IMG/VR virus record: IMGVR_UViG_3300037258_000375
Location: 1-64,000 of that record
DNA from: a virus
Length of the DNA: 64,000 nucleotides
Strand: one strand, 5' to 3'
Positions 28,082 through 49,432 of the stretch are shown here, piece after piece. The translations under genes were made by a program, and so were the position numbers. Positions within the stretch are counted from its first letter, which is position 1. Each line of letters begins with the position of its first letter. Below the pieces are notes generated by a model. It searched no databases. It was not told the DNA's origin and saw nothing but the letters and a program-made list of their open reading frames with translations.

Positions 28082-28429
28082 CTACGCTTTATGTTCGCTT
28101 AAATAGACGATTGCCGCGCGAAGTCTTTCCGGGTTGTCGCGGGCGAATCCGAGCATAAGATTGCAAGGTTGGCAAACCATCCCGCGAACTTTTCCCGTCA
28201 CGTGGCAATGGTCTCTCACGAGTCCGAATCCGTCTACACATCCCGGCAGTGGACACTCGCTCGCATGATCGCCACAAATCGCGCAACGGTTCCCTTGTGC
28301 TTTAGAAAGTAAGTATCGTTTGGTAGGAACGAAACACCCGATACAAACCCGCTCGCGGCGGCGCGGGCGCGGCGCGGCGGTCATATAGGGAATACGGCAA
28401 ACCCGGCAGGTAATCTGTATCTCTTCCAT
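28082..28429 (-). CDS. Endonuclease VII-like Holliday junction resolvase
   Basis: 115 aa. CAICG (49-53), DHCH (73-76), TGKVRGMVC and CQPCN (86-90) make the treble-clef His-Me nuclease of the T4 endonuclease VII family, including the catalytic H in DHCH and the N after the second zinc pair. It cuts branched DNA before packaging. The extra N-terminal Cx2C (C8, C11) and C29/C32 may add a zinc site. No clear promoter of its own was seen. Confidence 0.9.
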
Positions 28430-28441
28430 GCTGGCAGTATT

Positions 28442-28756
28442 TCACCATAGCCCATTGAACGCGCCGCGCGCCGCAAGGTCTTTCATGCGGGCATTAAAGT
28501 GTCTTCCCCGTGCGCCGCAAGAGTACCGGTTCCGCTGTTCGAGATGCACCATTTCATGAAACAAGGTGAATGCCCAGTGGCGGCGCGAGTCGCGTAACCG
28601 CTCATTGATCCGGATGCCGAACGTGTCCGCCGAACTTCGGCGCGGGGGATGCGCGCGCCGCGCGCGGAACGTGTATCCCAGTCCTACAAGGCGGGCGAAT
28701 CGCAATTCGCTCACGGCGGGCAATCGCCCGCCGAAATACCGGGCAGAACTCTTCAA
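28442..28756 (-). CDS. SprT-like zinc metalloprotease-like protein
   Basis: 104 aa. The active-site HEMVH (67-71) lies in HWAFTLFHEMVHLEQRN, followed by CGARGRHFNARM, giving the HExxH...H layout of SprT/Spartan-type proteases, which act on proteins bound or crosslinked to DNA in cellular homologues. The N-terminus carries arginine-rich text and is shorter than in SprT, so this is a minimal form. It ends 12 bases before the endonuclease VII gene. Confidence 0.75.
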   Translation of the reverse strand: MKSSARYFGGRLPAVSELRFARLVGLGYTFRARRAHPPRRSSADTFGIRINERLRDSRRHWAFTLFHEMVHLEQRNRYSCGARGRHFNARMKDLAARGAFNGLW

Positions 28757-28947: not shown

Positions 28948-29451
28948 ATGAACACAAGTAAACTCATTCAGACTGTATCGGAACTCGAAACATCAGAGGC
29001 AACCAGCCTCATGGAGATCAAAATGACACTCTCTGAGATCGTCACCGCTTACGAAGCAAAAGCTATTAACTCCGATGTGCTCATTGAGACGCTCTCTATC
29101 CAGAGCAGCCGTAATGGGCGCTTTAAAGTTATCGACTTGCAAGATGTCAATTGGATGGAGAGCCGGTATCGCAACGACTGCTATGCCAATCCGATGGCGG
29201 CCCTGACGCACGCGCTCCTGACCTCCGGCGCTCTCACCGTCATTGACCGCTCCAACAACTCCGTTTACGAGTGCGCGACGGTGGCGGACTGGATGCAGTA
29301 TCGCTACGAGCCAATCGTCACCACCTCTGCCTACCACAAGCTTAATCAGGCTGTGGACGCGATGCTGACCGCGATCAGCGAGGGCCATGACCGCGCCGTA
29401 ACAGGATATGCCCGTTACGCCGCTCATCAAGCATTGGCGATTTTAGGCTAA
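28948..29451 (+). CDS. Hypothetical protein opening the plus-strand operon
   Basis: 167 aa, mixed alpha/beta, with ESRYRNDCYANPMAALTHAL in the middle and a helical C-terminus. A 30-base stretch in its coding region (28987-29018) is repeated in the leaders of the next two genes. First gene after the promoter at 28876. Not recognised. Confidence 0.7.
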   Translation: MNTSKLIQTVSELETSEATSLMEIKMTLSEIVTAYEAKAINSDVLIETLSIQSSRNGRFKVIDLQDVNWMESRYRNDCYANPMAALTHALLTSGALTVIDRSNNSVYECATVADWMQYRYEPIVTTSAYHKLNQAVDAMLTAISEGHDRAVTGYARYAAHQALAILG

Positions 29452-29684
29452 GCTCCGCCGCGCCGCATCCACGGTAAGTGGAGCGTCTCGGCAAGCCAGT
29501 GAAGTAACAGCCCGCTTTTGATAGCGACCAACTTGATAGCGAACAGATATTTTGAAACATCAGAGGCAACCAGCCTCATGGGAGACATACAATGCAGATT
29601 CAACTTGCAATGGGCGCAAAAATTCACACAATCGAAGTAGAAGCCCACCACCGCAAAGGCGAAGGTTTTACGACTGTTCGCGCA
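29449..29684 (+). repeat. 236-bp direct repeat, copy 1
   Basis: Identical to 29973-30208 as far as I can see. It contains an unusual leader, the start codon and the first 31 codons of the gene at 29592. The end of the repeat lies in the codon for alanine 31. Confidence 0.9.
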
Positions 29685-29975
29685 GTGTCCGGCAAGGGCA
29701 CATGCGAAGATTTCAATGCGCTTTTCTGCTGCATGATTGCTCTCGATGCGAACGCGGAATTTGCGCCGCTCAGGATGAATATCACTAACAATTTTACGCA
29801 GCCGGGATTCACAGGGGTTTGGCTTGAGCGCAAATTCCGCTCCCGAAAGGCCGCTCAGCAATTTGTTGAGGCCACACAAGAGCGCATAGATTGCTATCGG
29901 CGTCGCGTTGCCGGGGCGTCTCAAATCACCGTACATGAACTGCTTGAGCGCCAATCCGCGTACCCTGCTGCATAA
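29592..29975 (+). CDS. Hypothetical protein, duplicated N-terminus
   Basis: 127 aa with GGGAGAC before the ATG. The N-terminal half has a beta-strand-rich start (IQLAMGAKIHTIEVEAHHRK), and the rest is helical with FRSRKAAQQFVEATQERI. Its first 31 codons and leader are repeated exactly at 30116. Unknown function. Confidence 0.65.
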   Translation: MQIQLAMGAKIHTIEVEAHHRKGEGFTTVRAVSGKGTCEDFNALFCCMIALDANAEFAPLRMNITNNFTQPGFTGVWLERKFRSRKAAQQFVEATQERIDCYRRRVAGASQITVHELLERQSAYPAA

Positions 29976-30208
29976 GCTCCGCCGCGCCGCATCCACGGTA
30001 AGTGGAGCGTCTCGGCAAGCCAGTGAAGTAACAGCCCGCTTTTGATAGCGACCAACTTGATAGCGAACAGATATTTTGAAACATCAGAGGCAACCAGCCT
30101 CATGGGAGACATACAATGCAGATTCAACTTGCAATGGGCGCAAAAATTCACACAATCGAAGTAGAAGCCCACCACCGCAAAGGCGAAGGTTTTACGACTG
30201 TTCGCGCA
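29973..30208 (+). repeat. 236-bp direct repeat, copy 2
   Basis: Second copy, 524 bases downstream of the first. It carries the same leader and the same 31 codons, but joins to a different coding tail at 30209. It looks like a recombination product with the intervening 3' part of the first gene left in between. Confidence 0.9.
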
Positions 30209-30329: not shown

Positions 30330-31364
30330 ATGCACGTCACACCCGCACAATTGACGGAACTGCTAACCAAGATGATTACGAAACGTCACCCCTTGCTCAT
30401 TACTGGAAAACCGGGAGCGGGAAAAACGGATATCGCGCGCCACGTGGCGGAGAACCTTTGCAAAAATGATTTTATTGTCACTCACCCCGTAGTGGAAGAC
30501 CCTACAGACCGCAAGGGAATCCCGTGGCCAGACGCGAAGACCCTTTCATGCTTGTGGCTAACAGATGACGTCACGAAGCAACTTTGCACGGCAACGCGTC
30601 CCACCACGTGGCTTATCGATGACTTAGGGCAGGCATCGCCCGCCGTGCAAGCGGTCCACATGCAATGGTTGCTTAATCGCGGAGTGAATGGGCATAAGCT
30701 AAGTGACTTCGTGACCGTTCTCGCCGCAACTAATCGCCGCGCGGATCGTGCGGGAGTCTCCGGGATTCTCGAACCGGTAAAATCGCGGTTCGTCTCCATA
30801 GTGGAACTTGAACCGGTAATCAATGACTGGTGCGCATGGGCTATTGACCACGATATTCCCGCTATGCTGATAGCTTTCTTGCGGTACCGTCCGGAATTAC
30901 TCTGCAAATTCGAAGCGAGCGCAGATTTAACAAACTCGCCCGTCCCGCGCACATGGGCGAATCTCGCCAAACTAGAAGAGTTGAATCTCTCCCCCGCCGT
31001 GGAAACAATCGCATTCGCGGGCGCAGTGGGAGAAGCGGCGGCGGGCGAGTACCTTGCATTCCGACAGATGGCGAACTCGATTGTTAACGTGGATGCGATT
31101 ATTTTGACTCCGGACACGGTCAAGATTCCCACGAAACCAAACGAACTGTATGCCACAGTTACAGCACTCGCGGGACGCGCCACAAACCAGAACTTCGCGC
31201 GCGTAGGAACGTACGCAACACGTCTTGCAGTTGAGGCAAGGCGCGGCGAGTTTGCCGTGCTGCTTCTCCGCGATGCAATTCGCCGCAACGAAAAACTCAC
31301 TTACAACGAAACATTTACTAAGCTGTCTTGCGGTCCAATCGGCGAACTTATGGCGGGGAACTAA
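30330..31364 (+). CDS. MoxR-type AAA+ ATPase
   Basis: 344 aa from the ATG at 30330, behind GGAGG; earlier in-frame ATGs lack a site. Walker A GKPGAGKT (26-33), Walker B TWLIDDLG (93-100), sensor 1 AATN (132-135) and a trans-acting-type arginine in VKSRF (153) are visible. MoxR ATPases act with VWA-domain partners as chaperone-like machines. The next two genes supply a helical protein and a VWA/metalloprotease protein, so this is likely an operon-encoded three-part complex. Confidence 0.85.
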   Translation: MHVTPAQLTELLTKMITKRHPLLITGKPGAGKTDIARHVAENLCKNDFIVTHPVVEDPTDRKGIPWPDAKTLSCLWLTDDVTKQLCTATRPTTWLIDDLGQASPAVQAVHMQWLLNRGVNGHKLSDFVTVLAATNRRADRAGVSGILEPVKSRFVSIVELEPVINDWCAWAIDHDIPAMLIAFLRYRPELLCKFEASADLTNSPVPRTWANLAKLEELNLSPAVETIAFAGAVGEAAAGEYLAFRQMANSIVNVDAIILTPDTVKIPTKPNELYATVTALAGRATNQNFARVGTYATRLAVEARRGEFAVLLLRDAIRRNEKLTYNETFTKLSCGPIGELMAGN

Positions 31365-31430
31365 TCCAAGGTCTGGATACATTGTCCGCCCGGAGCGAAC
31401 CGGGCAAGTCACGAATCGGAGGGTAGGAAA

Positions 31431-32429
31431 ATGACAGCATCTGAAATGCATTCGCGGGCGATACTCGTTAGTTTGCGCATCTCCGCTTGGAGTGCTCGCA
31501 AGTATGACCGCAAGGTCACGAACGAAACGAATCAAGCACACGGCGCGGACGCGGACGCGGGACGCTATAACAAAAACCTGCTACCGGGCGATGCGCCCAG
31601 CTACAAGGCACTCACACAGCACATTACCGCGATGCGCGCACAGCATACGGCACAAACCCTTGCGTGGTCCGATGACGGATGGAGACTGCTACCCGTGCGG
31701 AACTTCCAAAAGTACATGGACATGGTACGGCAAGGTCAACACACGTTTGACCGTCTTTTAGAGGAATTCTGGAGAGACTACCCCACACTTCGGGCGCAGG
31801 CAAAAGATAGATTGAACGGCATGTATCTGGATGCCGATTATCCGCGCGATATCCGCGACCGTTTTTCTTTTGCGATGGAACCCGCGCCCGTCCCCGCCGC
31901 TACCGATTACCGCGTTGCGCTCACACAGGACGAAATAAACACAATCGCGACACGCACAGAGGAAAGAGTCAAGCAAGCATTCGCGGACGCGCAGAAAGAC
32001 GCCGTCCAGCGTCTTTACAAGTGTGTGAGCCATATCCACGAACGGTTGACCGCTGTACGCGTCACAAAGGACCGTGCGACTAAAGCGCGCACACTGAAGA
32101 AGGATCATTATGACAAGGTCACAGGCGAATTGATTCCAGCGGGGACCGTGATACCAGGACGCGCCATTGCGGGCGGCCAAGTAAAAAATGCAACCTTCCG
32201 CGATACCCTGGTAGACAACGCGCGAGAACTCTGTGAGATTCTCCGCTATATCAACCTTGCGGATGACCCGAAGTTAGAAGAATTCCGCCGTCAAACGGAA
32301 CTTATAGCGGGCAGCACTGAAGCGGAAACACTCCGCGACAGCGACGCCGTACGGAAAGACACTGCGAACCGCGCACAATCCATCTTGGACGCAATGGCAG
32401 CTACCTACGGCGCGGCGGTGCAAGCATGA
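31431..32429 (+). CDS. Helical partner protein of the MoxR-VWA trio
   Basis: 332 aa, mostly long charged helices (for example AFADAQKDAVQRLYKCVSHI). It occupies the place of DUF3150-like coiled-coil proteins between phage MoxR and VWA genes. No catalytic motif. Its stop overlaps the VWA gene start, consistent with joint translation. The family assignment is from context. Confidence 0.6.
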   Translation: MTASEMHSRAILVSLRISAWSARKYDRKVTNETNQAHGADADAGRYNKNLLPGDAPSYKALTQHITAMRAQHTAQTLAWSDDGWRLLPVRNFQKYMDMVRQGQHTFDRLLEEFWRDYPTLRAQAKDRLNGMYLDADYPRDIRDRFSFAMEPAPVPAATDYRVALTQDEINTIATRTEERVKQAFADAQKDAVQRLYKCVSHIHERLTAVRVTKDRATKARTLKKDHYDKVTGELIPAGTVIPGRAIAGGQVKNATFRDTLVDNARELCEILRYINLADDPKLEEFRRQTELIAGSTEAETLRDSDAVRKDTANRAQSILDAMAATYGAAVQA

Positions 32430-33586
32430 ACAGCGCAGAACATAAAATGATGGCGGCGCGCACGTCTCTTGTATTGGAACAGCCTTTTTGGGGTTCGCTC
32501 ATTCTTTCACTAGAATTCCGCGCGGACCTTACTTGTAAAACTGCATGGGTAGACGGGCGAACACTCGGATACAATCCCGCGTTTATCGAATCACTCACCC
32601 ATGACCGCATTGTCGCGTTGCAAGCACATGAGGTAAGCCACTGTGCATTGGGGCATCCATGGCGGCGCGATGCGCGGGACCTTTATCACTGGAATCTCGC
32701 GTGTGACAAGGCAATCAACACAGATTTACGCGCGTCCGGATTCACTCTCCCGGAGAACGTCTTTTATGCGGAAGGGGAGGAAATAGGAAAATCGGCGGAG
32801 TGGATTTTCGCCCGCCTTGACAGAGGGAACGGGGACGCGCCGCAAGAGGACAGCGCGCAAGAGGGAGAGCAAGACGCGCAGGACGGGGACGGCGGCGCGG
32901 GTGATCCGCTGGGCGAAGTGAGAGACGCGCCGAAAACTCCGGATGCGGATGGAGACGCCCCGCCCAGCGAACAAGATTGGAAACAACGCACCATTGCGGC
33001 GGCGCAACAAGCGAAAATGCAAGGCAAGCTACCGGGGGGAATGGCGCGTCTAGTGTCGCAGGCAATGAAACCAAAAATAGACGTTCGATCTCTTTTGTTG
33101 CGCTTTTTCTCCGAACGTTCCACGGGCGATTATTCGTGGACTCGCCCGAACACACGGTACCTTTCACAAGGTCTCTACTTGCCCGCATTGGAATCGCGCG
33201 CGCTGGGCGAAGTGGCAATCATGATAGACACGTCTGGAAGCGTGGATGACGTCGCGCTGGGCTATGCGCGCAATATCGTGCAAGACGTCTTAGACGAATG
33301 CAACCCCACGGGGACCACGCTTGTATTCGCGGATGCGGACGTCAAGCACACGGAACGGGTGGAACAAGGCGCGCCGCTCACGTGGGAACCGCAAGGCGGA
33401 GGTGGTACGGATTTTTGTCCCGCACTGGAGTACATAGACAAAGATGGTCAATTCGCCTGTGTCGTATGCATCTCTGATTTGGCGGGGACCTTTCCGGACG
33501 CGCCGCCCGCCTTGCCTATCCTGTGGCTGTCTACTGAAGAAAATGCAATCGCACCATTCGGGGAAACGGTCTTCATAGACCACTAG
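32426..33586 (+). CDS. Metallopeptidase-VWA fusion protein
   Basis: 386 aa. The N-terminal part has HEVSH (68-72) in LQAHEVSHCALGHPWRR, a zinc-peptidase motif. An acidic, disordered linker (135-190) follows. The C-terminal part carries a VWA MIDAS motif MIDTSGS (266-272). Such DUF2201-type proteins pair with MoxR ATPases in phages and bacteria, where they may remodel or cut a target. The substrate is unknown. Here the trio is separated from the next gene by tandem GC hairpins. Confidence 0.75.
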   Translation: MNSAEHKMMAARTSLVLEQPFWGSLILSLEFRADLTCKTAWVDGRTLGYNPAFIESLTHDRIVALQAHEVSHCALGHPWRRDARDLYHWNLACDKAINTDLRASGFTLPENVFYAEGEEIGKSAEWIFARLDRGNGDAPQEDSAQEGEQDAQDGDGGAGDPLGEVRDAPKTPDADGDAPPSEQDWKQRTIAAAQQAKMQGKLPGGMARLVSQAMKPKIDVRSLLLRFFSERSTGDYSWTRPNTRYLSQGLYLPALESRALGEVAIMIDTSGSVDDVALGYARNIVQDVLDECNPTGTTLVFADADVKHTERVEQGAPLTWEPQGGGGTDFCPALEYIDKDGQFACVVCISDLAGTFPDAPPALPILWLSTEENAIAPFGETVFIDH

Positions 33587-39816: not shown

Positions 39817-40353
39817 ATGCCGAAGATTACGAGAGATGACTTGATTTGGGCCGCTGGGCTATTCGATGGAGAGGGGTGTATCAGTCTCAGTAAAAGGAGT
39901 CCTCAAGTGCTTAACAATGCAGTGAGCCATAACTATGTTCTCATCGCCAAAGTTACGATGTGTCACGAATCTACGGTCTTACGCCTCCATGATATTTTCG
40001 GCGTCGGCACTGTTCATAAACAACGCCGACAAAAGAAGCACTTCTCTCGATCTTGGGTCTGGTTCTGCAATCGTGCTGATGCTGAATTTGTGATACTCCA
40101 GATGAAGCCATGGTTATTCACTAAAGCCAGCGAAGCAGATTTGGCGGTTGAGTTTTTCTCTCTTCCACTCATGGAAAAGGGTGGAAGGTGGGGAAGTCGC
40201 CCGGTGACACCGCAGCTTGAAACAAAGCGCCATCAACTCTTCGTGAAGCTGCGCAACTGCAAATCTCGGAATGCCGCAATAGAAAGGAGAGCTAAGAATG
40301 AAAATAAAATATCAAGACATAAAACTGGGCGCTCGATCACTGGAATTGATTAA
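39817..40353 (+). CDS. LAGLIDADG homing endonuclease
   Basis: 178 aa from the ATG at 39817. WAAGLFDGEGCISLSK (about 10-25) is the LAGLIDADG motif. A second catalytic-type pattern is not obvious, so it probably acts as a dimer. It overlaps the TOPRIM gene by 56 bases, so insertion may have reshaped that start. The overlap carries the TOPRIM gene ribosome site (AGGAGAGC). Confidence 0.8.
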   Translation: MPKITRDDLIWAAGLFDGEGCISLSKRSPQVLNNAVSHNYVLIAKVTMCHESTVLRLHDIFGVGTVHKQRRQKKHFSRSWVWFCNRADAEFVILQMKPWLFTKASEADLAVEFFSLPLMEKGGRWGSRPVTPQLETKRHQLFVKLRNCKSRNAAIERRAKNENKISRHKTGRSITGID

Positions 40354-41224
40354 AATCTGCAACACGATTGTTGCCGATTATCAACGTCAGGGTTACATAC
40401 TGACACTTCGGCAGCTTTTTTATCAGCTTGTCAGCCGTGATGTGATCCCGAACAGACAAAGCGAGTACAAACGCGTCGGTTCGGTCGTCAATGACGGCAG
40501 GCTCGCCGGGTTAATCGACTGGAGCGCTTTAGAAGACCGCACACGCAACGTCAAGTCTGTGGGCCACTGGGACTCGCCGGAGGAGATCGTCGAGGCCATC
40601 TCCCGCCAGTACGCCATCGACAAGTGGGAAGGGCAACCCACGCGCCCCGAGGTGTGGATCGAGAAAGACGCCCTTGTTGGCGTTATTGAACGAACATGCA
40701 GAGATATTGACGTGTCTTACTTCTCTTGCCGTGGCTACACTTCGCAGTCGGAGATGTGGGGAGCCGCGCAGCGGTTCATCCAGAATGCGAAGCAGAAACA
40801 AGTGACACACGTCATTCACCTGGGAGATCACGACCCTTCCGGGATCGACATGAGCCGCGACATCGAAGACCGCATCCGCATGTTCATGTCGCACCATGGC
40901 TACGGTGCCAGCTTGTTTGAATTCTCGCGCATCGCGCTCAACCGCGACCAGATCGACCAGTACAATCCACCACCGAACCCAGCGAAGTCAACGGATAGCC
41001 GCTTCCAGGGATACAGCGACGAGCACGGTGACGAGTCCTGGGAGTTGGATGCCTTGGAGCCCGCTGTCTTGGACGGTTTGATACGGGACAAAATTGCTGA
41101 GTTTCGCGACGACGACCTGTATGCCGAGAGGCAGGATCAGGAAGACCGCGAAAAGAGCCAGCTTGCCAAGGTCAGCGACAAGTGGGAAACGGTTGTCGAG
41201 TTCATCGAAAACGAAGACGAATAA
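40298..41224 (+). CDS. TOPRIM-domain DNA-processing protein
   Basis: 308 aa. The TOPRIM core shows WIEKDALVGVI (glutamate at 122) and HLGDHDPSGIDMSRD (DHDPSG at 177-182). The N-terminus (TLRQLFYQLVSRDVIPN) is a helical, winged-helix-like region, as in topoisomerase VI A/Spo11-type relatives. TOPRIM proteins nick or cut DNA or act in repair. Alternative: a nuclease of the OLD or RecR type, but the layout fits topoisomerase VI-like better. Confidence 0.7.
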   Translation: MKIKYQDIKLGARSLELIKICNTIVADYQRQGYILTLRQLFYQLVSRDVIPNRQSEYKRVGSVVNDGRLAGLIDWSALEDRTRNVKSVGHWDSPEEIVEAISRQYAIDKWEGQPTRPEVWIEKDALVGVIERTCRDIDVSYFSCRGYTSQSEMWGAAQRFIQNAKQKQVTHVIHLGDHDPSGIDMSRDIEDRIRMFMSHHGYGASLFEFSRIALNRDQIDQYNPPPNPAKSTDSRFQGYSDEHGDESWELDALEPAVLDGLIRDKIAEFRDDDLYAERQDQEDREKSQLAKVSDKWETVVEFIENEDE

Positions 41225-41235
41225 TCGGAGGGTTT

Positions 41236-41670
41236 ATGAGCGAATCGAAAATGGGGGCCATCGTCCAGTATTGCGGGCACGATGGATGGTTCATCGCCGA
41301 TATCCATCGAGTGGAAAACGTGAATGTCATCTACGCTTCACGGCCTGTCACGATGGAGAATCTCAACCGTCCAGCGGAGGACTGCACGCACCACATCACA
41401 GACTTCCCGGTTGGTGGCTTCTGGAAGCCGCAGAAGGGTATCTTCGTGATCCCTGAAGCGCAGTGCAAGGCATTGTCTGGCAATGGCGCGCCCAAGCAGG
41501 GGAAGGAGTTTGTTGCATCGATCCTCCCCGAAGTGGTATGCAGCGACGAAGTCAATGGTTGGATGATCCTCGCCGCTCCGGGTGCTAAATGCGCCTTGCT
41601 ATCTGGAGCAAAAACTGAAGTGGCCGCATGGAACAGAGCCGCTCGAATGCTCGGCTGTACCGCTTATTAA
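41236..41670 (+). CDS. Hypothetical protein
   Basis: 144 aa from the ATG at 41236, behind GGAGG. Beta-rich with VQYCGHDGWFIADIHRVENV, then WKPQKGIFVIPEA. Unknown function. Confidence 0.6.
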   Translation: MSESKMGAIVQYCGHDGWFIADIHRVENVNVIYASRPVTMENLNRPAEDCTHHITDFPVGGFWKPQKGIFVIPEAQCKALSGNGAPKQGKEFVASILPEVVCSDEVNGWMILAAPGAKCALLSGAKTEVAAWNRAARMLGCTAY

Positions 41671-41679
41671 GGAGGGCCT

Positions 41680-42084
41680 ATGCCAGCGCTAGGATCAGAG
41701 TGGATCAAAGTACGACCGGAACTCGCCGCAGGCGGAGAGCATTTCACGTTTAAGACGGAGATCAGCGTGGACCGTGGGGGAATGTTCACGTTCACGATCC
41801 CGGAAGAATTGGAAGATACCGCCAGGGCGAACGCGAAGGGTAAGGTCGATGTATCGGTCGGCAAGATGCGCGTGAATTACTACATTATGACGCGGACGAA
41901 AGACCAAGGTATGGAATTCCTTCGCTCGGTCGCGCAAGATTACATCAACTGCGACGTCACTCGTGAGACAGTGATTCTCTACACGACACGTGCGAACGTA
42001 AGCTATTGGAAGAAACAAGACGGTGCCATCGTTCCGAACGGAGCCTACGATCCAAACTACAGCAAGATGGACATGGCACGGTAA
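41680..42084 (+). CDS. Hypothetical protein
   Basis: 134 aa, preceded by GGAGGG. Strands such as HFTFKTEISVDRGGMFTFTI suggest a beta-sandwich. Ends in NYSKMDMAR. Not recognised. Confidence 0.6.
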   Translation: MPALGSEWIKVRPELAAGGEHFTFKTEISVDRGGMFTFTIPEELEDTARANAKGKVDVSVGKMRVNYYIMTRTKDQGMEFLRSVAQDYINCDVTRETVILYTTRANVSYWKKQDGAIVPNGAYDPNYSKMDMAR

Positions 42085-42136
42085 GACTTCGAACGAATGG
42101 AGGTTTGATAGGGATATAACTTATTCGGTGGGCTTG

Positions 42137-42466
42137 ATGGCTCATGCGTATATCAAGGTCACGGCACACCGCAAGTCCGGGGATCAGATTGGATGGGAAC
42201 GCGCCGGGGAGAACTGCCACTCGGAGCCAGACAACTACCTGGACAAGCTCAACTCCTTCATCGGCGGTCTTTCCATAAGTGACATGGGAGAGTACCAGGA
42301 GATTCCGTACACCGAAGAAGCGGCCAAGTTCTTCTATGAGGCTATCCTCTCGATCTGCAAGCTCTCGGATCGAATCGAATCCTTCTTCGGTAATCCGGGG
42401 AACGTACAGAAAGCCATTGAGAGCCGCGCAAGCTTCATGCTCGGGGCTGGGAAGGAAAAATCATGA
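42137..42466 (+). CDS. Hypothetical protein
   Basis: 109 aa from the ATG at 42137 (MAHAYIKVTAHRK). GGAGG lies farther upstream next to TTTGATAGGGAT, so the start is uncertain. Mixed helix and strand with FIGGLSISDMGEYQEI. Its end overlaps the next gene. Confidence 0.55.
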   Translation: MAHAYIKVTAHRKSGDQIGWERAGENCHSEPDNYLDKLNSFIGGLSISDMGEYQEIPYTEEAAKFFYEAILSICKLSDRIESFFGNPGNVQKAIESRASFMLGAGKEKS

Positions 42467-42669
42467 CTACTCGCTTGAAGGGGTTCACGGTCGTACTCGA
42501 CCATGACATCCGCGATGACGACGCCGAGACAATCAAGCAAGCGATCCTCGCGCTTCGCCACGTACAAGACGTTCAACCGGTGCCGGTGGACGTCGCAGAC
42601 TTTATCATCCGCGCTCGCGTCCGGCGTGAACTATTGGAAAAAGTTCTCAAGGTCATTGAGGAGAACTAA
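42463..42669 (+). CDS. Conserved phage protein
   Basis: 68 aa. KGFTVVLDHDIRDDDAETIK, then LRHVQDVQPVPVDVADFI, is a small alpha/beta protein widespread in phage genomes and still without a known role. Coupled to both sides. Confidence 0.65.
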   Translation: MTTRLKGFTVVLDHDIRDDDAETIKQAILALRHVQDVQPVPVDVADFIIRARVRRELLEKVLKVIEEN

Positions 42670-42680
42670 GCCGGATTCAA

Positions 42681-42699
42681 CCGTCCGAACTCTGGACGG
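42681..42699 (+). repeat. CCGTCC-N7-GGACGG hairpin repeat, copy 3
   Basis: CCGTCCGAACTCTGGACGG has a 6-bp stem, and lies between the stop at 42669 and the next gene. Same layout as 33663 and 35491. Confidence 0.5.
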
Positions 42700-42735
42700 G
42701 TAACCACAACCATCAACCAAAGGGAGAAGAACATC

Positions 42736-43041
42736 ATGAGTGATATAAGAGCAGCAGTCAAAGAAGTCGAGGGGCAGATTGAGACGCGTATGCGTTTCCT
42801 CCAGGCTCTTGCGTTTCTCGAATCGCTGGGCAAGACCATCGGGATACATCTTGTGGCACAAGACATCTCGGGGCGAAAGGTCAAGTCTGCGAAGGTGAGC
42901 CATCACAAGAAGGCAGCCCAACCAGCCAAGCGCAAGCTGAGCACAGCGGGCCGCAAGGCAATCGCAGCAGCAGCAAAGAAGCGCTGGGCAAAGGTCCACG
43001 CCGCACAGCGGGCAGCAAAGAAGAAGAAGGCCGCGAAGTAA
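42736..43041 (+). CDS. Lysine-rich, histone-tail-like protein
   Basis: 101 aa. The N-terminal half is helical, and the C-terminal half is lysine and alanine rich (KKAAQPAKRKLSTAGRKAIA, then KKRWAKV). It probably binds DNA. No defined domain is seen; possible chromatin-like or nucleoid-associated role. Confidence 0.6.
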   Translation: MSDIRAAVKEVEGQIETRMRFLQALAFLESLGKTIGIHLVAQDISGRKVKSAKVSHHKKAAQPAKRKLSTAGRKAIAAAAKKRWAKVHAAQRAAKKKKAAK

Positions 43042-43100
43042 GCGGCCCTTCCTGGACTCCCTCCCCCTCACCCTCTCACACACAGAAAGGTATTCGAGCG

Positions 43101-44201
43101 ATGGCAAAGACGAAGGTACCCACGATCACGACCACTGTAGAAGCATTCGTAGCAGCGCTAAAGAACACGGTCACGGAAAGAGGCTCTGTCACCATACCCA
43201 TCCTTGGCTACGCGCGCGTACAAAACGCGACAGTGATCGGCACGACTCTCGATGTGTTCACTATCGTGAAGTTCGAGGGCAAGGGGCAGGGAGACTTCCT
43301 CATCCACCCACGTCGCGCTATCGATGTATTGAGCGGAGAAAAAGGTCCGCTTGTGATCGAATTTCACGACACAAACGAACCGAGGGGCGAGCGCAAGGTA
43401 AAGCTCAAGGTGGGCACGCTTGAGTTCACGCTTCCGACGCTGGCGGTCGAGAACTTCCCTCACATGCCGGAGCCGATAAAGACGACTCTCGCCATAGATG
43501 GTGCCGCGCTCAAGACGATGATCGACCGCACCCGCATCGCAGTCTCAGCAGACGAATCGCGCTACACGATCAACGGCACACTCCTATCAACTGAAAATGG
43601 AACTGTCACGATGGTAGCGACAGATGGGCACCGCATGAGTGTCGTAACCGCACCTGGAGAAGGAGAGCTTGAGAATGTCATTCTCTCGAAGAGCACAACG
43701 GAGTGGCTTCGCAACAACTGCCGGGGCAAGGTACAGATCGGCAGAGATACCAGTGGTAACATCATCTCCACGGATACGGGAATTGTGATATCGAAGACGC
43801 TGAGCGGCCAATTCCCGAACTATCAGGCTGTGATCCCAACAAAGTCTTCAGTCTCCGTACGCTTCTCTTCCTCCAAAACAGCCGCCGCCTTCTTGAAGCG
43901 CGCTTGCAAATGCGCGAGCCGAGAGAGCGGCACGATCAAGCTGTTTCTCGAAAAAGGAAAGCAAGAGGTAGTGATTTTGGCTGAATCGTTGGAGCGCGGA
44001 TCGGCGCGTGTTCCAGTCCCCGCAGCTATTGAAAACATGCAGACTACGGGAATGACGATTGGATTCTGCGGAGAGTTCATTCTCGATTTTCTTGCCGTGC
44101 TCCCCGACCAGGAATTCACCCTCTCTCTCACCAAGGCAGACATGGCCGGAATGTTCGAGGTGGAGAACTTCAAGTACATTGTCATGCCGATGCGCCTCTG
44201 A
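43101..44201 (+). CDS. dnaN: DNA polymerase III sliding clamp (beta)
   Basis: 366 aa, the full length of bacterial beta clamps. Three-part clamp fold: RYTINGTLLSTENGTVTMVA followed by TDGHRMSVV mark domain 2, and the final YIVMPMRL is the characteristic C-terminus used by clamp-binding proteins. The phage therefore carries its own processivity factor. The next gene begins after the promoter at 44230. Confidence 0.95.
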   Translation: MAKTKVPTITTTVEAFVAALKNTVTERGSVTIPILGYARVQNATVIGTTLDVFTIVKFEGKGQGDFLIHPRRAIDVLSGEKGPLVIEFHDTNEPRGERKVKLKVGTLEFTLPTLAVENFPHMPEPIKTTLAIDGAALKTMIDRTRIAVSADESRYTINGTLLSTENGTVTMVATDGHRMSVVTAPGEGELENVILSKSTTEWLRNNCRGKVQIGRDTSGNIISTDTGIVISKTLSGQFPNYQAVIPTKSSVSVRFSSSKTAAAFLKRACKCASRESGTIKLFLEKGKQEVVILAESLERGSARVPVPAAIENMQTTGMTIGFCGEFILDFLAVLPDQEFTLSLTKADMAGMFEVENFKYIVMPMRL

Positions 44202-44229
44202 CAATAACCTCACTTGTGTACGATTATTC

Positions 44230-44258
44230 TTGACACCGAATAAAAAGGAGCGCAGAGT
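44230..44258 (+). promoter_or_regulatory. Promoter of the ParB-like gene unit
   Basis: TTGACA (44230-44235), a 17-base spacer and CAGAGT (44253-44258) in GGAGCGCAGAGTAAC. The gene at 44308 starts 49 bases downstream. Confidence 0.6.
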
Positions 44259-44307
44259 AACAAAGAACCGCTCATGCGGGCAATCAATCTCCGGGAGGAA
44301 TAACGCT

Positions 44308-45120
44308 ATGGCAGTTGAATGGGCATCGGAAGATATAAAGCGGGCGGGGGCACTTTACGTTGCATTCCCGGAAGACATCACCATTGTCGAGGAACTCAAC
44401 GGACGGCATGATCCGACCGACATCGAGGCTCTTGCCGCTGACATCGAAGCCAACGATCAGCACACGCCGGTTGGCCTTCGCAAGAATGACGACGGGCAAC
44501 CAGTGCTTGTGTACGGTCACCGCCGCTGGGAAGCGGTCGCGTTGCTCAACAAGAAGTACCCGCATAGCAAGCGCAAGCTTGTCGGCACCTATCTGAGCGT
44601 GGATGAGAACGGCGCGTTCATCGCCGCGATCAGCGAGAACCGTTTCCGCAAGGACGTATCCCCCATAGACGACTGTGCGAATATCAACACGCTGCGCAAG
44701 CGGCTGAAGTTCGCAGATGAGGACATCGCTAAGGTCTATTTCCCCGAAGCCAAGAGCAAGGAAGAACTCGCAGCGGCTCTCCGCTTCGTGAAGCAACGCG
44801 GATCGCTCATTGAACTCGCGCCCGAGGCAGCTACCGCCGTCCGCGAGGGCAAGGTCAAGGTAACCGCTGCCGTCAGGCTCGCGAAGCTCTCCAAGAACTT
44901 GCAGCGCGAGAAGCTGAAAGAGCAGCCAGCCAAGATGAAGGCAAAGGACGTGCCCGCGCCGAAGCCGAAGCGTGAGAGCATTCCCGCGACCATGCTTCCC
45001 CTGGTGAAGAAGGCAATCAAGGACTTGCTGTTGAAAGACCTCGAAAACACGCAGTATCCCTACGTCGAGGTCAAGCGGGAGCCTATGCTTGCTCTCTACC
45101 GTCTCATCAACCCTAGCTAG
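44308..45120 (+). CDS. ParB/Srx-domain DNA-binding protein
   Basis: 270 aa from the ATG at 44308 with GGGAGG upstream. VLVYGHRRWEAVALL (GHRR, about 70-73) and ENRFRKDVSPI are the CTPase/nuclease-type ParB N-terminal motifs. A helix-turn-helix then follows in the middle (AALRFVKQRGSLIEL). No ParA gene is seen in the window. It could spread on DNA from a parS-like site; one candidate is at 26897. Confidence 0.8.
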   Translation: MAVEWASEDIKRAGALYVAFPEDITIVEELNGRHDPTDIEALAADIEANDQHTPVGLRKNDDGQPVLVYGHRRWEAVALLNKKYPHSKRKLVGTYLSVDENGAFIAAISENRFRKDVSPIDDCANINTLRKRLKFADEDIAKVYFPEAKSKEELAAALRFVKQRGSLIELAPEAATAVREGKVKVTAAVRLAKLSKNLQREKLKEQPAKMKAKDVPAPKPKRESIPATMLPLVKKAIKDLLLKDLENTQYPYVEVKREPMLALYRLINPS

Positions 45121-45151
45121 TCCGAGCTTCGGATAGGTCAAGGAGATATCG

Positions 45152-45706
45152 ATGAAGCTGAGCTATGCTGAACGCCATCGCTTCGACAAGGCCGCTCCAT
45201 TCAAGATCGATGGTGTTTACTGTAAGCTGATTCCTTTGACGAAGGGGCAGTACGCAATCGTGTGGGAATCCGATTACGAATGGTTAATGTTTTGGAACTG
45301 GTGCGCTAGATGGAACGGCCATCCCAAGACGTACTATGCCGTTCGTGGCGTACAAAAAGACGATAGACAGCAACTGATTTATATGCACCGCTTTATCAAA
45401 GGGCTTGCCCCCGGTGATTTACTCCAATGCGATCATAAAAGTCCTGGGAGCGGCTTGGATTGCCGACGCTCTAATTTACGCATTGCCTCTAACGCGCAGA
45501 ATCACTGGAATCAAGGTGTACGCAAGAATAACAAAAGTGGCTATAAAGGCGTATATCTTCGGAAAGATACAGGGAAATGGACGGCACAGATTACAGTGAA
45601 CGGACGATGCAAGACACTCGGTTCATTTCGCAGTAGACGCGTAGCTTTTCTCGCGTATTGTAAGGCAGCAGAACTTTACCATGGCGAATTCGCACGAGTC
45701 GCTTAA
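45152..45706 (+). CDS. HNH-AP2 homing endonuclease, second copy
   Basis: 184 aa. HNH near MHRFIKGLAPGDLLQCDHKS then NLRIASNAQNHWN. AP2 domain starts KSGYKGVYLRKDTGKW. Overall similar to the gene at 254. It stands between the ParB gene and an unrelated small gene, in the same direction as these. Confidence 0.85.
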   Translation: MKLSYAERHRFDKAAPFKIDGVYCKLIPLTKGQYAIVWESDYEWLMFWNWCARWNGHPKTYYAVRGVQKDDRQQLIYMHRFIKGLAPGDLLQCDHKSPGSGLDCRRSNLRIASNAQNHWNQGVRKNNKSGYKGVYLRKDTGKWTAQITVNGRCKTLGSFRSRRVAFLAYCKAAELYHGEFARVA

Positions 45707-45721
45707 GATAAGGAAAATTGC

Positions 45722-45949
45722 ATGAGTGTCAAAATCAAAGGGCATCGCCTTCTTCCCGCTGATCCACAACAACCGCGCAGAGCCACATGTGGATGTGGCG
45801 CATGGTGTAACTTAATCACCGGAGTCGGGTCCGCGCTTATTCTCAAGGCAAGGTCCGATTGGCACCTGGAGCATAAGCTCAACGTCCTCCACAGCCAGGG
45901 TAAGCTCGACGAAGAGGAGGATAAACCGATATGGGCGGACATGCGATAG
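45722..45949 (+). CDS. Hypothetical protein with CxC motif
   Basis: 75 aa. RRATCGCGAWCNLIT has three cysteines in a row of spacing Cx1Cx3C, and the remainder is helical with RSDWHLEHKLNVLHSQ. It overlaps the next start. Unknown. Confidence 0.55.
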   Translation: MSVKIKGHRLLPADPQQPRRATCGCGAWCNLITGVGSALILKARSDWHLEHKLNVLHSQGKLDEEEDKPIWADMR

Positions 45950-46230
45950 GTGCTGTGATCTTTGGGATATTTTTCCTTTCGGCTATCAGCGTTGCATTGA
46001 TCGGTCTTATTCGGCTTGACGATAAGAGCGGGCGGAGTGTTGACTGGCACAGACGCAATGGACGCTGGCGTGTACAGTATCCAAACGGCGGTGTCTCGCA
46101 ACCATTTACGCGCTCCGTGGCTAAGGATTACGCGAAGTTGTTCGGCGGTGTTGTCGTTCGAAAGGAGAAGGAACCAAATGAATCTGGACAAAGCGAACTG
46201 GAGGAAGGGTCTTCATCCGGAAGACATTGA
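45931..46230 (+). CDS. Membrane protein
   Basis: 99 aa. Residues 6-27 (GAVIFGIFFLSAISVALIGL) form a membrane segment, then an RRNGRWRVQYPNGG beta stretch. Overlaps genes on both sides. The tail is polar. Confidence 0.5.
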   Translation: MGGHAIGAVIFGIFFLSAISVALIGLIRLDDKSGRSVDWHRRNGRWRVQYPNGGVSQPFTRSVAKDYAKLFGGVVVRKEKEPNESGQSELEEGSSSGRH

Positions 46231-46381
46231 AGCGGACGGTCAGCGCTATGGCCCAGCATTCGTGTTTGGCACACGCATGTACCATTCGCATAAACCTATC
46301 AACTACACGGCAATTTTTGTCGTCTTCTTTTTCATCTCTTTCGTTCTCTCGTTTCTTGGATTCCGACTCGGCTGGTGGTAA
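46178..46381 (+). CDS. Small membrane protein
   Basis: 67 aa from the ATG at 46178. One transmembrane helix near the C-terminus (TAIFVVFFFISFVLSFLGF). It overlaps the previous gene by 53 bases. Role unknown. Confidence 0.45.
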   Translation: MNLDKANWRKGLHPEDIEADGQRYGPAFVFGTRMYHSHKPINYTAIFVVFFFISFVLSFLGFRLGWW

Positions 46382-46393
46382 TGAGGTGCTGCT

Positions 46394-46672
46394 GTGAGCA
46401 TTAAAGAAATCGTAATTCACACGTACAGTTGCCGGTGCGATTTACCAGAATGTCCGGGGAAGGGAAAGCCTTGGATCGCAACAAAAGGAGTACCGAAGCG
46501 ATGCCGGTACTGCAAGAGACTGGCCTGGAACGGCAAAGGTCGGGAGGTACGAAAGAACGCACTCCCCATCAAGTACGACGACATGACCGACGAAGAGCGT
46601 CGTGAATACAACCGCAAGAAGAAAACTGAGTCGAGAGCCAGGATAAAAAAAGAGGCTGGGGATGACGACTAA
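46394..46672 (+). CDS. Cysteine-rich small protein
   Basis: 92 aa from a GTG at 46394. CRCDLPECPGKG then PKRCRYCKRLAW gives two metal-binding clusters, followed by a basic, disordered tail (YNRKKKTESRARIKK). A DNA or RNA-binding role is plausible. Confidence 0.6.
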   Translation: MSIKEIVIHTYSCRCDLPECPGKGKPWIATKGVPKRCRYCKRLAWNGKGREVRKNALPIKYDDMTDEERREYNRKKKTESRARIKKEAGDDD

Positions 46673-46979
46673 CAAAAAGACGCTGCCTCTCCGAATCCTT
46701 GAGGCTCTAGCCGCGTTCGAAGATGGGCGCGCCGCGTACGTCCATCTCATGTGGAAGGTGTGGCCACCGAAGGATTACCCACGAGCTTATCGGCACTCAG
46801 GCAAGGGTGGTCCTCCGGGAGTGTCACGAGTTTTCAGTGGGGCTCTCAACCGGATGCGGCAACAGGGGTTGATTGCACGTACGCGATATTCCATTGGATA
46901 CGAGCAGCGATATGGACAGCCAGATGTAATCATTCTCTCCACCGGAAGAAAGGCGCTCAAAGATGATCTTCAAGCGTGA
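46662..46979 (+). CDS. Possible winged-helix DNA-binding protein
   Basis: 105 aa. LPLRILEALAAFEDGRAAYV and GVSRVFSGALNRMRQQGLIA have the repeated-helix rhythm of a winged-helix domain, and the tail RQPDV-like strand closes it. The fold call is tentative. Confidence 0.5.
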   Translation: MTTNKKTLPLRILEALAAFEDGRAAYVHLMWKVWPPKDYPRAYRHSGKGGPPGVSRVFSGALNRMRQQGLIARTRYSIGYEQRYGQPDVIILSTGRKALKDDLQA

Positions 46980-47154
46980 ACGCAGAACCTATCCAACTGT
47001 ACATTGGCAGGGCGGACGCCTGCCAGGAAGTATCCGTACGTTCTGCGGACCTCTCATCACCGACAAGACGGCGCATTCGCCCGACAAAGCAAAGGTGAAC
47101 TGCAAGCGGTGTCTCCAGTGCATGAGGCGGCACGGGCATCTTCCGACAGAATAA
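46963..47154 (+). CDS. Zinc-binding small protein
   Basis: 63 aa. CGPLITDKTAHSP then CKRCLQCMRRHG supplies CxxC pairs. Overlaps the previous gene by 17 bases. Unknown function. Confidence 0.55.
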   Translation: MIFKRERRTYPTVHWQGGRLPGSIRTFCGPLITDKTAHSPDKAKVNCKRCLQCMRRHGHLPTE

Positions 47155-47166
47155 GGAGGTCATGGG

Positions 47167-47823
47167 ATGGAATTCCCCGATCTTGAAAAATTGGACGACA
47201 TAGCGCTCATGAAAGAAGTCGTTGCTGAGAACGGCGATGCGCTCGCGGTATTATTTGACCGTTACCACAACAGGGTTCTTAGTGTAGGGCTCAGAATTCT
47301 CAAGAATCGCGAAGAAGCTGAAGAAGTAATGCAGCAGGTATTTTTAGAAGTTTGGCGTGTAGGAGCAAAGTTCGATCCCGCAAAGGGAAAGTTCTACACG
47401 TGGTTGATGCAATACGCTTATCATCGAAGTCTTAATCGGAGGCAGAGCCTTATCTCTCGACGTTTCTGGAGTCATTGCGGCTTCGACATATTCGCCGGGA
47501 TGCGTGCAGGGAGCGACGATAAGGTTAATCGGCGATTCCGCGATGGCACCTTTGAGCCGCCCGAGGAGTTAATGTTGCGGCCTCAAGGTGAGTGCAACCG
47601 GCTCGTGGAGGAAGTGCTGAAGGCATTGAATGAAGAACAGCGACATGCAATTCGCCTTGTCCACTACGAAGGCATGAGTTTGAAAGAGGCTGCTGAAGTA
47701 GCTAACACGCCTTTTCACAATATGCGTCACCATTATTACCGGGGTTTGCAAAAGATGAAAAAGCATCTTTCTATACTTGCTCAAAAAAACAAAAACTTGG
47801 ACACTCTCGGAGGAAAATCGTGA
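47167..47823 (+). CDS. ECF-type sigma factor
   Basis: 218 aa. Sigma-2-like part (residues 25-95): ALAVLFDRYHNRVLSVGLRI, then EEVMQQVFLEVWR and FYTWLMQYAYHRSLNRRQ. Sigma-4-like part: LNEEQRHAIRLVHYEGMSLK, then AAEVANTPFHNMRHHYYRG with the helix-turn-helix. An ECF-style sigma could direct the host RNA polymerase to phage promoters. No anti-sigma neighbour is visible. It overlaps the next gene by four bases. Confidence 0.85.
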   Translation: MEFPDLEKLDDIALMKEVVAENGDALAVLFDRYHNRVLSVGLRILKNREEAEEVMQQVFLEVWRVGAKFDPAKGKFYTWLMQYAYHRSLNRRQSLISRRFWSHCGFDIFAGMRAGSDDKVNRRFRDGTFEPPEELMLRPQGECNRLVEEVLKALNEEQRHAIRLVHYEGMSLKEAAEVANTPFHNMRHHYYRGLQKMKKHLSILAQKNKNLDTLGGKS

Positions 47824-48152
47824 GCGAATTTATGACCGTGGACCATCCGCGAGCTTTCGAGGGTATGACTCTCGATCCTCACAAAGAGTTGCGGATCAAG
47901 CACTATCCGGAAGAGACGCATCTATGCCCGCTCTGCAAGGGCTACGGCGGATGGCATCTCCAGTTCGACGCCTACGGTCCAGGCAAGCACTTTGACTCTA
48001 GTTGCTTCCAGTGCAACGGGTGGGGATACGTCTCGGCAAAGGATGCAGATCACATACATAAGTACGGTCCAGGCACTACGGTAGGGCACTGCCTGAATAA
48101 CTATACCTGTGAGATTTGCAATCAAGTACGCACTGTCGATTCGAGCGACTGA
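47820..48152 (+). CDS. Multi-cysteine protein, DnaJ-like zinc pattern
   Basis: 110 aa, coupled to the sigma gene. CPLCKGYGGWHL, then CFQCNGWGYV, then CEICNQV carry three CxxC units. The first two match CxxCxG zinc repeats. It could be a zinc-binding partner of the sigma factor, but this is only context. Confidence 0.55.
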   Translation: MSEFMTVDHPRAFEGMTLDPHKELRIKHYPEETHLCPLCKGYGGWHLQFDAYGPGKHFDSSCFQCNGWGYVSAKDADHIHKYGPGTTVGHCLNNYTCEICNQVRTVDSSD

Positions 48153-48153
48153 A

Positions 48154-48387
48154 ATGAAGCGGCGGGTCGTCATCGAAGTGTGGGAGTGTGAGTGCTCGCA
48201 GTGCGGGCATCCGCGAGACCGATACAAGCCTTGGTACAGTCTCGCGAAGCGTCCTCCGCAAGAATGCCCTGGTTGTGGATCGCGTGAATGGGACGGCAAG
48301 AAGATCAAGCACAAACCGGGGGCGAAGCCGAAGATCGAATTACCAAAACCAGTTCGAGTGAGAGCTACCGAGGGGGACGAATGCTAA
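48154..48387 (+). CDS. Zinc-ribbon protein
   Basis: 77 aa from the ATG at 48154. CECSQCGHPRDRYKP then CPGCGSREWDGKK has two Cx2C pairs about 22 residues apart, a standard zinc ribbon. The C-terminus is lysine- and proline-rich (HKPGAKPKIELPKPV). Possible RNA/DNA-associated role. Confidence 0.6.
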   Translation: MKRRVVIEVWECECSQCGHPRDRYKPWYSLAKRPPQECPGCGSREWDGKKIKHKPGAKPKIELPKPVRVRATEGDEC

Positions 48388-48662
48388 AGAGTGTTTTCTT
48401 GATGCTTCTATTGGTCGTTGGATGTGAAGTGACGGACGAATCCAAGGCCATTCACGTGATCGGAACAATAACAGCCGTGGAAAATGACGGCTCCTTCGAT
48501 CTGGAGAATAGCCAGTCCAAAATTATCCATTTCGATAGGTGCTGGGAACAGATCGGCCACTTTGATGTATGGAAAAATGAGCGCGTCGATCTCAATCTGC
48601 AAATCAAGGTAATGAATGGAGGACAGTGCGCCTTTATTGTTTCCTCTACTGATCTGCACTGA
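48381..48662 (+). CDS. Putative lipoprotein
   Basis: 93 aa from the ATG at 48381. LMLLLVVGCEV at residues 7-17 is a signal peptide with a lipobox-like VVGC, so C15 may carry lipid. The mature part is beta-rich. An envelope location is likely. Confidence 0.6.
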   Translation: MLKSVFLMLLLVVGCEVTDESKAIHVIGTITAVENDGSFDLENSQSKIIHFDRCWEQIGHFDVWKNERVDLNLQIKVMNGGQCAFIVSSTDLH

Positions 48663-48676
48663 AAGTGAGGATAGCT

Positions 48677-49252
48677 ATGATTAAAAGCTGGAAGCAAGAC
48701 CACGGTATAAGCAACGGCCCTGGAATCATCCTTGTCAATTCCAAGTACGTCCACAACGTCGCGGCGGCGATCCGCGCGGCGTCTTGCTTTGACGTGACTC
48801 GGCTTGTGTGGACGGGCAGCCGCGTCAATCCCGATCTACTCGACCGCCTGCCTCGCGAAGAGAGGATGAAGGGCTACAAAGACATCCTGTGGACACACGA
48901 CGTCAAGGACCGGCCCTTTGATTTATTCTCGCCTCGCGTCGTTCCGGTGTGCGTGGAGTTGCTCGAAAACTCCGAACCGCTCACAACCTTCGAACACCCT
49001 GATAACGCTGTGTACGTGTTCGGACCTGAAGATGGGGGAGTGCCGCAAGTGCTGCGCCGCTTCTGCCATCGCTTCGTTCACATTCAATCGAACCACTGCC
49101 TCAATCTTTCGGCAGCGGTGAATGTGGTTCTTCATGACAGAAAGTCTAAACGGCAGATCGCGGGCCTTGAGCCCATCTTGCCAACCGGCGAAATGCTCAA
49201 TGAACACAGAGGCCCGATGGAGATTGCCATAGCGGGATGGGATGGGTACTGA
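48677..49252 (+). CDS. SpoU/SPOUT-family RNA methyltransferase-like protein
   Basis: 191 aa from the ATG at 48677 (GAGG ATAGCT before it); a GTG at 48665 is less likely. VNSKYVHNVAAAIRAASCF at the start, YVFGPEDGGVPQ in the middle and HCLNLSAAVNVVLHDR near the end are motifs 1-3 of the SPOUT knot. Such enzymes methylate ribose or bases of tRNA or rRNA. The phage target is unknown. Confidence 0.8.
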   Translation: MIKSWKQDHGISNGPGIILVNSKYVHNVAAAIRAASCFDVTRLVWTGSRVNPDLLDRLPREERMKGYKDILWTHDVKDRPFDLFSPRVVPVCVELLENSEPLTTFEHPDNAVYVFGPEDGGVPQVLRRFCHRFVHIQSNHCLNLSAAVNVVLHDRKSKRQIAGLEPILPTGEMLNEHRGPMEIAIAGWDGY

Positions 49253-49432
49253 ATGCTGACCAAATTCTGGACGGTATGCAAACCATGCAACGGACGCGGT
49301 GAAGTCAATCCAAACTCTCCACATGCGCGCAAGCCGCCGAAGATGACCGGAGAGATTACGGATCGCACCACGAGCGTTTGTAAGAAGTGCTCCGGGTGCG
49401 GGATGCAGTGGAATATGACGAGGGGGAAATGA
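49253..49432 (+). CDS. Zinc-finger small protein
   Basis: 59 aa. CKPCNGRGEV then CKKCSGCGMQW are CxxC modules. It starts one base after the methyltransferase stop. Related in style to 39045 and 47820. Confidence 0.55.
   Translation: MLTKFWTVCKPCNGRGEVNPNSPHARKPPKMTGEITDRTTSVCKKCSGCGMQWNMTRGK

What the first reader, a model, noticed from the sequence alone, without database searches (positions are those of the whole stretch)
30330..33586. Phage-encoded MoxR / helical / VWA-metalloprotease trio
An AAA+ ATPase, a coiled-coil protein and a protein that joins HEVSH to a VWA MIDAS form one operon with overlapping or close starts. MoxR-VWA systems remodel proteins in bacteria. The zinc motif in the VWA partner suggests ATP-driven targeted cleavage, perhaps of host or virion proteins.
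Basis: partly seen in the sequence, partly recalled or inferred. Interest (0 to 1): 0.6.

Follow-up and report, generated by a model that had tools for sequence, protein, structure and literature searches.

The report
Phage AAA+/DUF3150-like/VWA-metallopeptidase cassette
Three neighbouring phage genes encode an ATP-driven protein-remodelling ring, a helical partner and a zinc-peptidase-like co-chaperone; the same trio travels through many phages and conjugative plasmids, which suggests a general tool of mobile elements acting inside the host cell rather than a virion-building part.

Summary
30330-31364 is a MoxR/midasin-class AAA+ ATPase. 31431-32429 is a mostly helical protein. 32426-33586 joins Pfam DUF2201_N ("putative metallopeptidase") to DUF2201 (VWA-like), with HEVSH and a full MIDAS. 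The AAA+/VWA-metallopeptidase pair is not new: it is gp24/gp25 of N4-like phages, PHROG 1297/1314 (misnamed "HNH endonuclease"), and was described in jumbo phages in 2021, with a proposed role in virion assembly.

What this adds. (1) The helical gene is a real third component: 59 viral loci hold all three genes, always on one strand, and 42 plasmid records and 5 metagenome-assembled bacterial contigs carry it too. (2) It is a divergent DUF3150 relative, which links the phage trio to the AAA-DUF3150-VWA trio of IncC-like plasmids. (3) HExxHxxxxH, N90/D94 and the MIDAS are invariant at about 30% identity. (4) The cassette lies with replication genes and on conjugative plasmids, which argues against a purely virion-assembly role.

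Best reading: an AAA+ ring with an adaptor and a VWA/zinc-peptidase co-chaperone that remodels, probably cleaves, a target protein early in infection. Proteolysis, complex formation and the target are inferred, not shown.

The parts
30330..31364 (+). AAA+ ATPase of the MoxR/midasin/NorQ class (PHROG 1297), 344 aa; Walker A 30405-30428, Walker B around 30612-30623
   Evidence: AAA_5 PF07728 over cut-off; PHROG 1297 E 5.8e-55; invariant G26, G29, G31, K32, N135, R153, P206, R207; family profile best matches solved midasin E 4e-37; NorQ E 1.9e-5
31431..32429 (+). Third component: mostly helical protein of 332 aa, divergent DUF3150 relative
   Evidence: viral structure match to a phage 'DUF3150 domain-containing protein', E 4.8e-16; profile-profile with plasmid DUF3150, 96.1%, E 3e-9; homologue L129 passes the PF11348 cut-off
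32426..33586 (+). VWA co-chaperone with N-terminal putative metallopeptidase, 386 aa (PHROG 1314)
32438..33190 (+). DUF2201_N putative metallopeptidase domain (PF13203), residues 5-255, with a disordered acidic linker at about residues 134-159
   Evidence: E 7.7e-54; pLDDT below 50 at 134-159
32627..32656 (+). HExxHxxxxH zinc-site motif (H68, E69, H72, H77)
   Evidence: Invariant in 61 homologues and not part of the search pattern used to collect them; also in N4 gp25 and plasmid homologues
32693..32719 (+). N90-x3-D94-xx-I97-N98 motif on the next helix; D94 is a candidate third zinc ligand (inferred)
   Evidence: Invariant in the helical-gene-anchored set A5, which was not selected for it; conserved as NxxxDxxI in N4 gp25
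33212..33577 (+). VWA-like domain (PF09967 DUF2201), residues 263-384, MIDAS D268-x-S270-x-S272 ... T328 ... D351
   Evidence: structure search best hit NorQD complex chain G (E 2.1e-3)

Best explanation
The three genes are one cassette encoding a MoxR-class AAA+ machine carried by mobile elements. The AAA+ protein forms the ATP-driven ring. The VWA protein docks on it through its MIDAS, as ViaA, NorD and midasin-type VWA partners do, and brings a zinc-metallopeptidase domain. The DUF3150-like helical protein is the adaptor that links substrate to the ring or to the VWA subunit. Made with the replication-stage genes, the machine pulls on a specific host or phage protein and remodels it, most likely with cleavage at the HExxH site, while the element establishes or replicates. 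Shown by tool results: the three genes, their domain homologies, invariant active-site residues, linkage and joint inheritance, replication-region context, presence on conjugative plasmids. Inferred: complex formation, peptidase activity, adaptor role, target and timing.
For: Domain identity. Helical-gene-anchored search: every locus whose contig reaches far enough holds AAA+ and VWA next to it, 21 of 26 outright with the other 5 cut by contig ends. VWA-anchored search, not selected for the helical gene: AAA+ in 55 of 56 loci with enough flank, helical gene in 26 of 56. Order AAA-helical-VWA in 49 loci, AAA-VWA-helical in 5, helical-AAA-VWA in 5, always one strand. Distance matrices of the three proteins correlate at r 0.82-0.93, 0 of 2000 permutations. 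Catalytic and MIDAS residues invariant. Neighbouring genes are DNA polymerase, primase, exonuclease and origin-binding families; in this phage topoisomerase, clamp, ParB and sigma genes. Plasmid trios and the DUF3150 link.
Against: About half of the phages with the AAA+/VWA pair lack the helical gene and N4, phage G, S-TIM5, PB119 and phiFa show no match to it, so it is not obligatory. No solved structure resembles the helical protein, and no PDB match covers the zinc domain convincingly. Zinc binding is unproved and the third ligand is a guess. No functional data on any member were found in the paper library searched.
Confidence: 0.5

Rival explanations
1. [quoted passage not shown]
For: Published proposal (PMC7824862); a viral MoxR-VWA pair without a peptidase was reported there as required for tail assembly of that archaeal virus.
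Against: Homologous trios sit on conjugative plasmids, some right next to type IV secretion genes. In phage loci the tallied neighbours are replication genes, with no head or tail family among the 25 most frequent. In N4 the pair lies with dCTP deaminase, rII-like and helicase genes, away from the virion cluster.
Confidence: 0.17
2. Metal-centre or cofactor maturation machine: the ring and VWA protein insert a metal or activate an element-encoded enzyme, and the HExxHxxxxH site carries or senses metal rather than cutting protein.
For: Many MoxR/VWA pairs load metals or activate metalloenzymes (CobS/CobT, NorQ/NorD, CoxD; established knowledge). The IncC VWA protein matches Pfam CobT just over cut-off and the phage VWA model's top structural match is the NorQD complex.
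Against: No conserved metalloenzyme partner gene stands out among neighbours; the HExxH glutamate, needed for catalysis but not for metal binding as such, is invariant.
Confidence: 0.18
3. Anti-phage or plasmid-exclusion defence module carried by mobile elements, using a triggered protease.
For: MoxR-vWA ternary systems with peptidase effectors are proposed conflict systems in multicellular bacteria (PMC7159879).
Against: PADLOC gives no hit for the helical or VWA proteins and only weak P-loop matches for the AAA+; found across N4-like phages as a conserved gene pair, unlike a variable accessory locus; no toxin-like effector recognised.
Confidence: 0.1
4. The helical gene is a passenger; only the AAA+/VWA pair is a functional unit.
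For: Missing from about half of pair-bearing phages and from N4.
Against: Not found away from the pair in any locus whose contig reaches far enough; joint inheritance; a distantly related DUF3150 gene sits in the same place in plasmid trios.
Confidence: 0.05

Closest known systems
MoxR AAA+ / vWA pair with N-terminal metallopeptidase in group 2.2 jumbo phages (Viruses 2021, PMC7824862)
   Same: Same two-component architecture: MoxR AAA+ plus vWA fused to an N-terminal metallopeptidase
   Different: That description has two components and proposes virion assembly; the third DUF3150-like gene, plasmid occurrence and replication-gene context are not in the passages read here
N4-like phage gp24 (ATPase) / gp25 (vWFA protein)
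   Same: Homologous AAA+ and VWA proteins, HExxHxxxxH and MIDAS kept
   Different: No match to the helical third gene in the N4 genome; gp24 and gp25 are separated by about 170 bp
AAA-DUF3150-VWA trio of IncC-like plasmids; pCAR1 ORF101/ORF103 and ICE/plasmid relatives (PMC2642839)
   Same: Same three gene types in the same order; HExxH at the start of the VWA protein
   Different: VWA protein is about 600 aa and CobT-like, not DUF2201; very low sequence similarity; in IncC itself the AAA gene is separated by ssb, bet and exo
NorQ-NorD, RavA-ViaA, CobS-CobT, midasin
   Same: MoxR-class AAA+ working with a MIDAS-bearing VWA partner; midasin and NorQ are among the solved matches of the AAA+ profile and NorQD is the top structural match of the VWA model
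   Different: Those partners are not known (from my own knowledge, not tested) to carry this DUF2201_N domain or a DUF3150 protein

Membership tests
MoxR-class AAA+ ATPase | Walker A/B, sensor 1, arginine finger, and closest solved relatives in the MoxR/midasin clade | tested here: met
MoxR-class AAA+ ATPase | Hexameric ring with ATPase activity | not testable with these tools
   Needs purified protein
DUF2201 VWA-like protein with DUF2201_N metallopeptidase domain | Pfam PF13203 and PF09967 over curated cut-offs, in that order | tested here: met
   183.6 bits (cut-off 23.2) and 72.6 bits (cut-off 26.4)
DUF2201 VWA-like protein with DUF2201_N metallopeptidase domain | HExxH and MIDAS residues conserved | tested here: met
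Zinc metallopeptidase | Zinc binding and peptide-bond cleavage | not testable with these tools
   Motif only; third ligand (H77 or D94) unresolved
DUF3150 (PF11348) | Over the Pfam gathering score | tested here: not met
   No PF11348 match in this virus record, L002's record or MinM2; relative L128 just under cut-off, 22.1 against 24.9
DUF3150 (PF11348) | Homology by profile comparison and linking sequences | tested here: met
   96.1% probability over 210 columns, control comparisons 0.3-0.5%; L129 scores E 3.4e-44 with the phage profile and 35.3 bits, over cut-off, with PF11348
Anti-phage defence system | Match to PADLOC models | tested here: not met

The most novel reading that the evidence does not exclude
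A mobile-element-borne AAA+ protease of a type not yet characterised: a MoxR ring whose VWA co-chaperone carries the zinc peptidase in cis and whose DUF3150 adaptor selects targets, shared by tailed phages and conjugative plasmids and used to remove or reshape host factors during establishment or replication.
Probability: 0.3. Interest if true: 0.75.

Novelty: new variant of a known kind. Interest (0 to 1): 0.52.

Why it matters
Hundreds of sequenced phages (697 records) encode this VWA-metallopeptidase, many under the wrong name, HNH endonuclease, so a widespread phage machine is hidden by annotation. Showing that the DUF3150-like gene is a third part, and that the same three-part layout recurs on conjugative plasmids, moves the question from virion assembly to a shared host-cell function that can be tested in N4 and E. 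coli.

Tried and rejected
1) I first read the 220-aa 'M[AK][ST]VR[ML]' family (A7, PHROG 1965) as an alternative occupant of the middle slot. Rejected: it co-occurs with the helical gene in 18 loci, then downstream of the VWA gene, shows no profile similarity to it, and is absent from this virus record. 2) PHROG 1314's 'HNH endonuclease' label was rejected: Pfam finds metallopeptidase plus VWA domains. 3) Defence-system matches: none useful. 4) Structure search of the helical protein in the PDB: nothing. 5) First scan of bacterial genomes with a three-sequence profile found none; a second with 18 sequences found 5 contigs, all holding AAA+ and VWA genes beside it, two of them with the AAA+ gene cut by the contig end. 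6) Homology between the phage and plasmid zinc domains is suggestive only: 85.8%, E 5e-6, over 45 columns. 7) CRISPRi-ART phage screen paper: no N4 data found. 8) The E. coli phage-plasmid stretch L134 was listed but not used. Bias noted: one search's search pattern forced N90/D94/I97/N98 in loci L036-L115, so their invariance rests on A5, which was not selected for them.

Full report
WHAT IS THERE. The window is the first 64,000 bases of a 105,298-base virus record. Three + strand ORFs lie at 30330-31364, 31431-32429 and 32426-33586. The first is an AAA+ ATPase (PF07728 over cut-off, PHROG 1297 E 5.8e-55). A profile of its family matches solved midasin (E 4e-37) far better than any other chain, with NorQ also listed, which places it in the MoxR/midasin clade. 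The third is DUF2201_N, 'putative metallopeptidase domain' (E 7.7e-54), followed by DUF2201, 'VWA-like' (E 4e-20). The second had no Pfam match and only one weak PHROG match below 0.001.

IS THE MOTIF MORE THAN CHANCE. In 61 aligned homologues H68, E69, H72, H77 and the MIDAS residues D268, S270, S272, T328 and D351 never vary, although mean column identity is 29%. None of these was in the search pattern that fetched the sequences. N90, D94, I97 and N98 were, but they are equally invariant in the 17-member set A5 found through the neighbouring gene. N4 gp25, cyanophage S-TIM5 and plasmid homologues also keep HExxHxxxxH. D94 as third zinc ligand is inference.

THE THIRD GENE BELONGS. Searching IMG/VR with the helical protein gave 27 loci. 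Of the 26 not duplicating L002, 21 contain AAA+ and VWA genes beside it and the other 5 are cut by contig ends. Searching independently with the VWA protein gave 80 loci. Where flanks suffice (56), AAA+ is present in 55 and the helical gene in 26. All 59 loci holding all three have them on one strand, median span 3.2 kb. Order is AAA-helical-VWA in 49, with two other orders in 5 each. Pairwise distances of the three proteins correlate at 0.82-0.93, as for a cassette inherited as a unit. The co-occurrence is therefore real but the helical gene is optional: N4, phage G, S-TIM5, PB119 and phiFa show no match.

WHAT THE THIRD GENE IS. AlphaFold gives long helices with short strands. The best viral structure match is a phage protein annotated DUF3150. 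Against five plasmid DUF3150 proteins the helical-family profile scores 96.1% (E 3e-9, 210 columns), while control comparisons give 0.3-0.5%. A linking sequence, L129, is found by both the phage profile (E 3.4e-44) and PF11348 over cut-off. The window protein itself does not reach the PF11348 threshold, so it is a divergent relative, not a formal member.

ELSEWHERE. The same trio is on Burkholderiales plasmids: 42 plasmid records hold the helical gene. In the regions opened it is flanked by an AAA+ gene and the VWA gene, in some cases right beside virB11/virB2-4-like conjugation genes; in the Paraburkholderia record the AAA+ reading frame is broken into two hits, and in Simplicispira the ATP-binding gene lies about 3.6 kb upstream. 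Five metagenome-assembled bacterial contigs hold the trio. A second, distantly related layout, AAA-DUF3150-VWA with HExxH at the start of a CobT-like VWA protein, is on several plasmids. The literature notes the MoxR and VWA genes of pCAR1 and their conservation in R478, Rts1, SXT and R391 (PMC2642839); no paper in the library mentions DUF3150.

HOW IT LIKELY WORKS. By established knowledge, MoxR AAA+ proteins act with VWA partners that contact the ring or its clients through the MIDAS. Here the VWA partner brings its own zinc-peptidase-like domain, with a flexible acidic stretch (residues about 134-159, pLDDT below 50), and the DUF3150-like protein is the natural candidate adaptor. The published proposal for the two-component jumbo-phage version is virion assembly plus processing of structural proteins (PMC7824862). 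Two findings argue for a host-cell role instead: plasmids carry the trio, and the 93 neighbouring phage ORFs scanned hit DNA polymerase, primase, exonuclease and origin-binding families, with no head or tail family in the 25 listed. In this phage the + strand block holds topoisomerase, clamp, ParB, sigma and integrase genes, while the terminase is on the other strand. Which protein is acted on is unknown. A metal-insertion role remains a serious rival.

VERDICT. Observation confirmed; interpretation partly supported. The pair is known; the three-part cassette in phages, its DUF3150 link and its spread over plasmids are the addition. New variant of a known kind.

Noticed in passing
window 29449-29684 and 29973-30208: Perfect 236-bp direct repeat just upstream of the trio, duplicating the start of the ORF at 29592-29975; looks like a recent local duplication.
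   Followed up: partly
window 28442-28756 (-): Small ORF with HEMVH that looks SprT-like (by eye; only weak PHROG matches), next to an endonuclease-VII-like ORF (by eye) at 28082-28429 (-).
   Followed up: no
window 55309-56445 (-): Adenylosuccinate synthetase gene (PF00709 E 4.6e-53; PHROG 1211, named there '2-aminooxy adenylosuccinate synthetase') that keeps GDEGKG; whether the phage makes a modified base was not tested.
   Followed up: partly
window 40298-50581 (+): Topoisomerase, clamp-like factor, ParB-like, sigma-like and integrase genes in the same strand block as the trio, suggesting a temperate phage or phage-plasmid.
   Followed up: partly
L054:5327-5986, L057:5319-5993 and 17 others (alignment A7): A second family of about 220 aa (PHROG 1965, unknown function) often sits beside the AAA+/VWA genes in other phages, between them or just downstream.
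   Followed up: partly
GenBank phage records, e.g. NC_008720.1 gp25: The VWA-metallopeptidase is widely mislabelled 'HNH endonuclease' in phage records, probably from PHROG 1314.
   Followed up: yes
window 31431-32429, residues about 212-258: The helical protein of this phage has an insertion of about 40-45 residues that its closest relatives lack.
   Followed up: no
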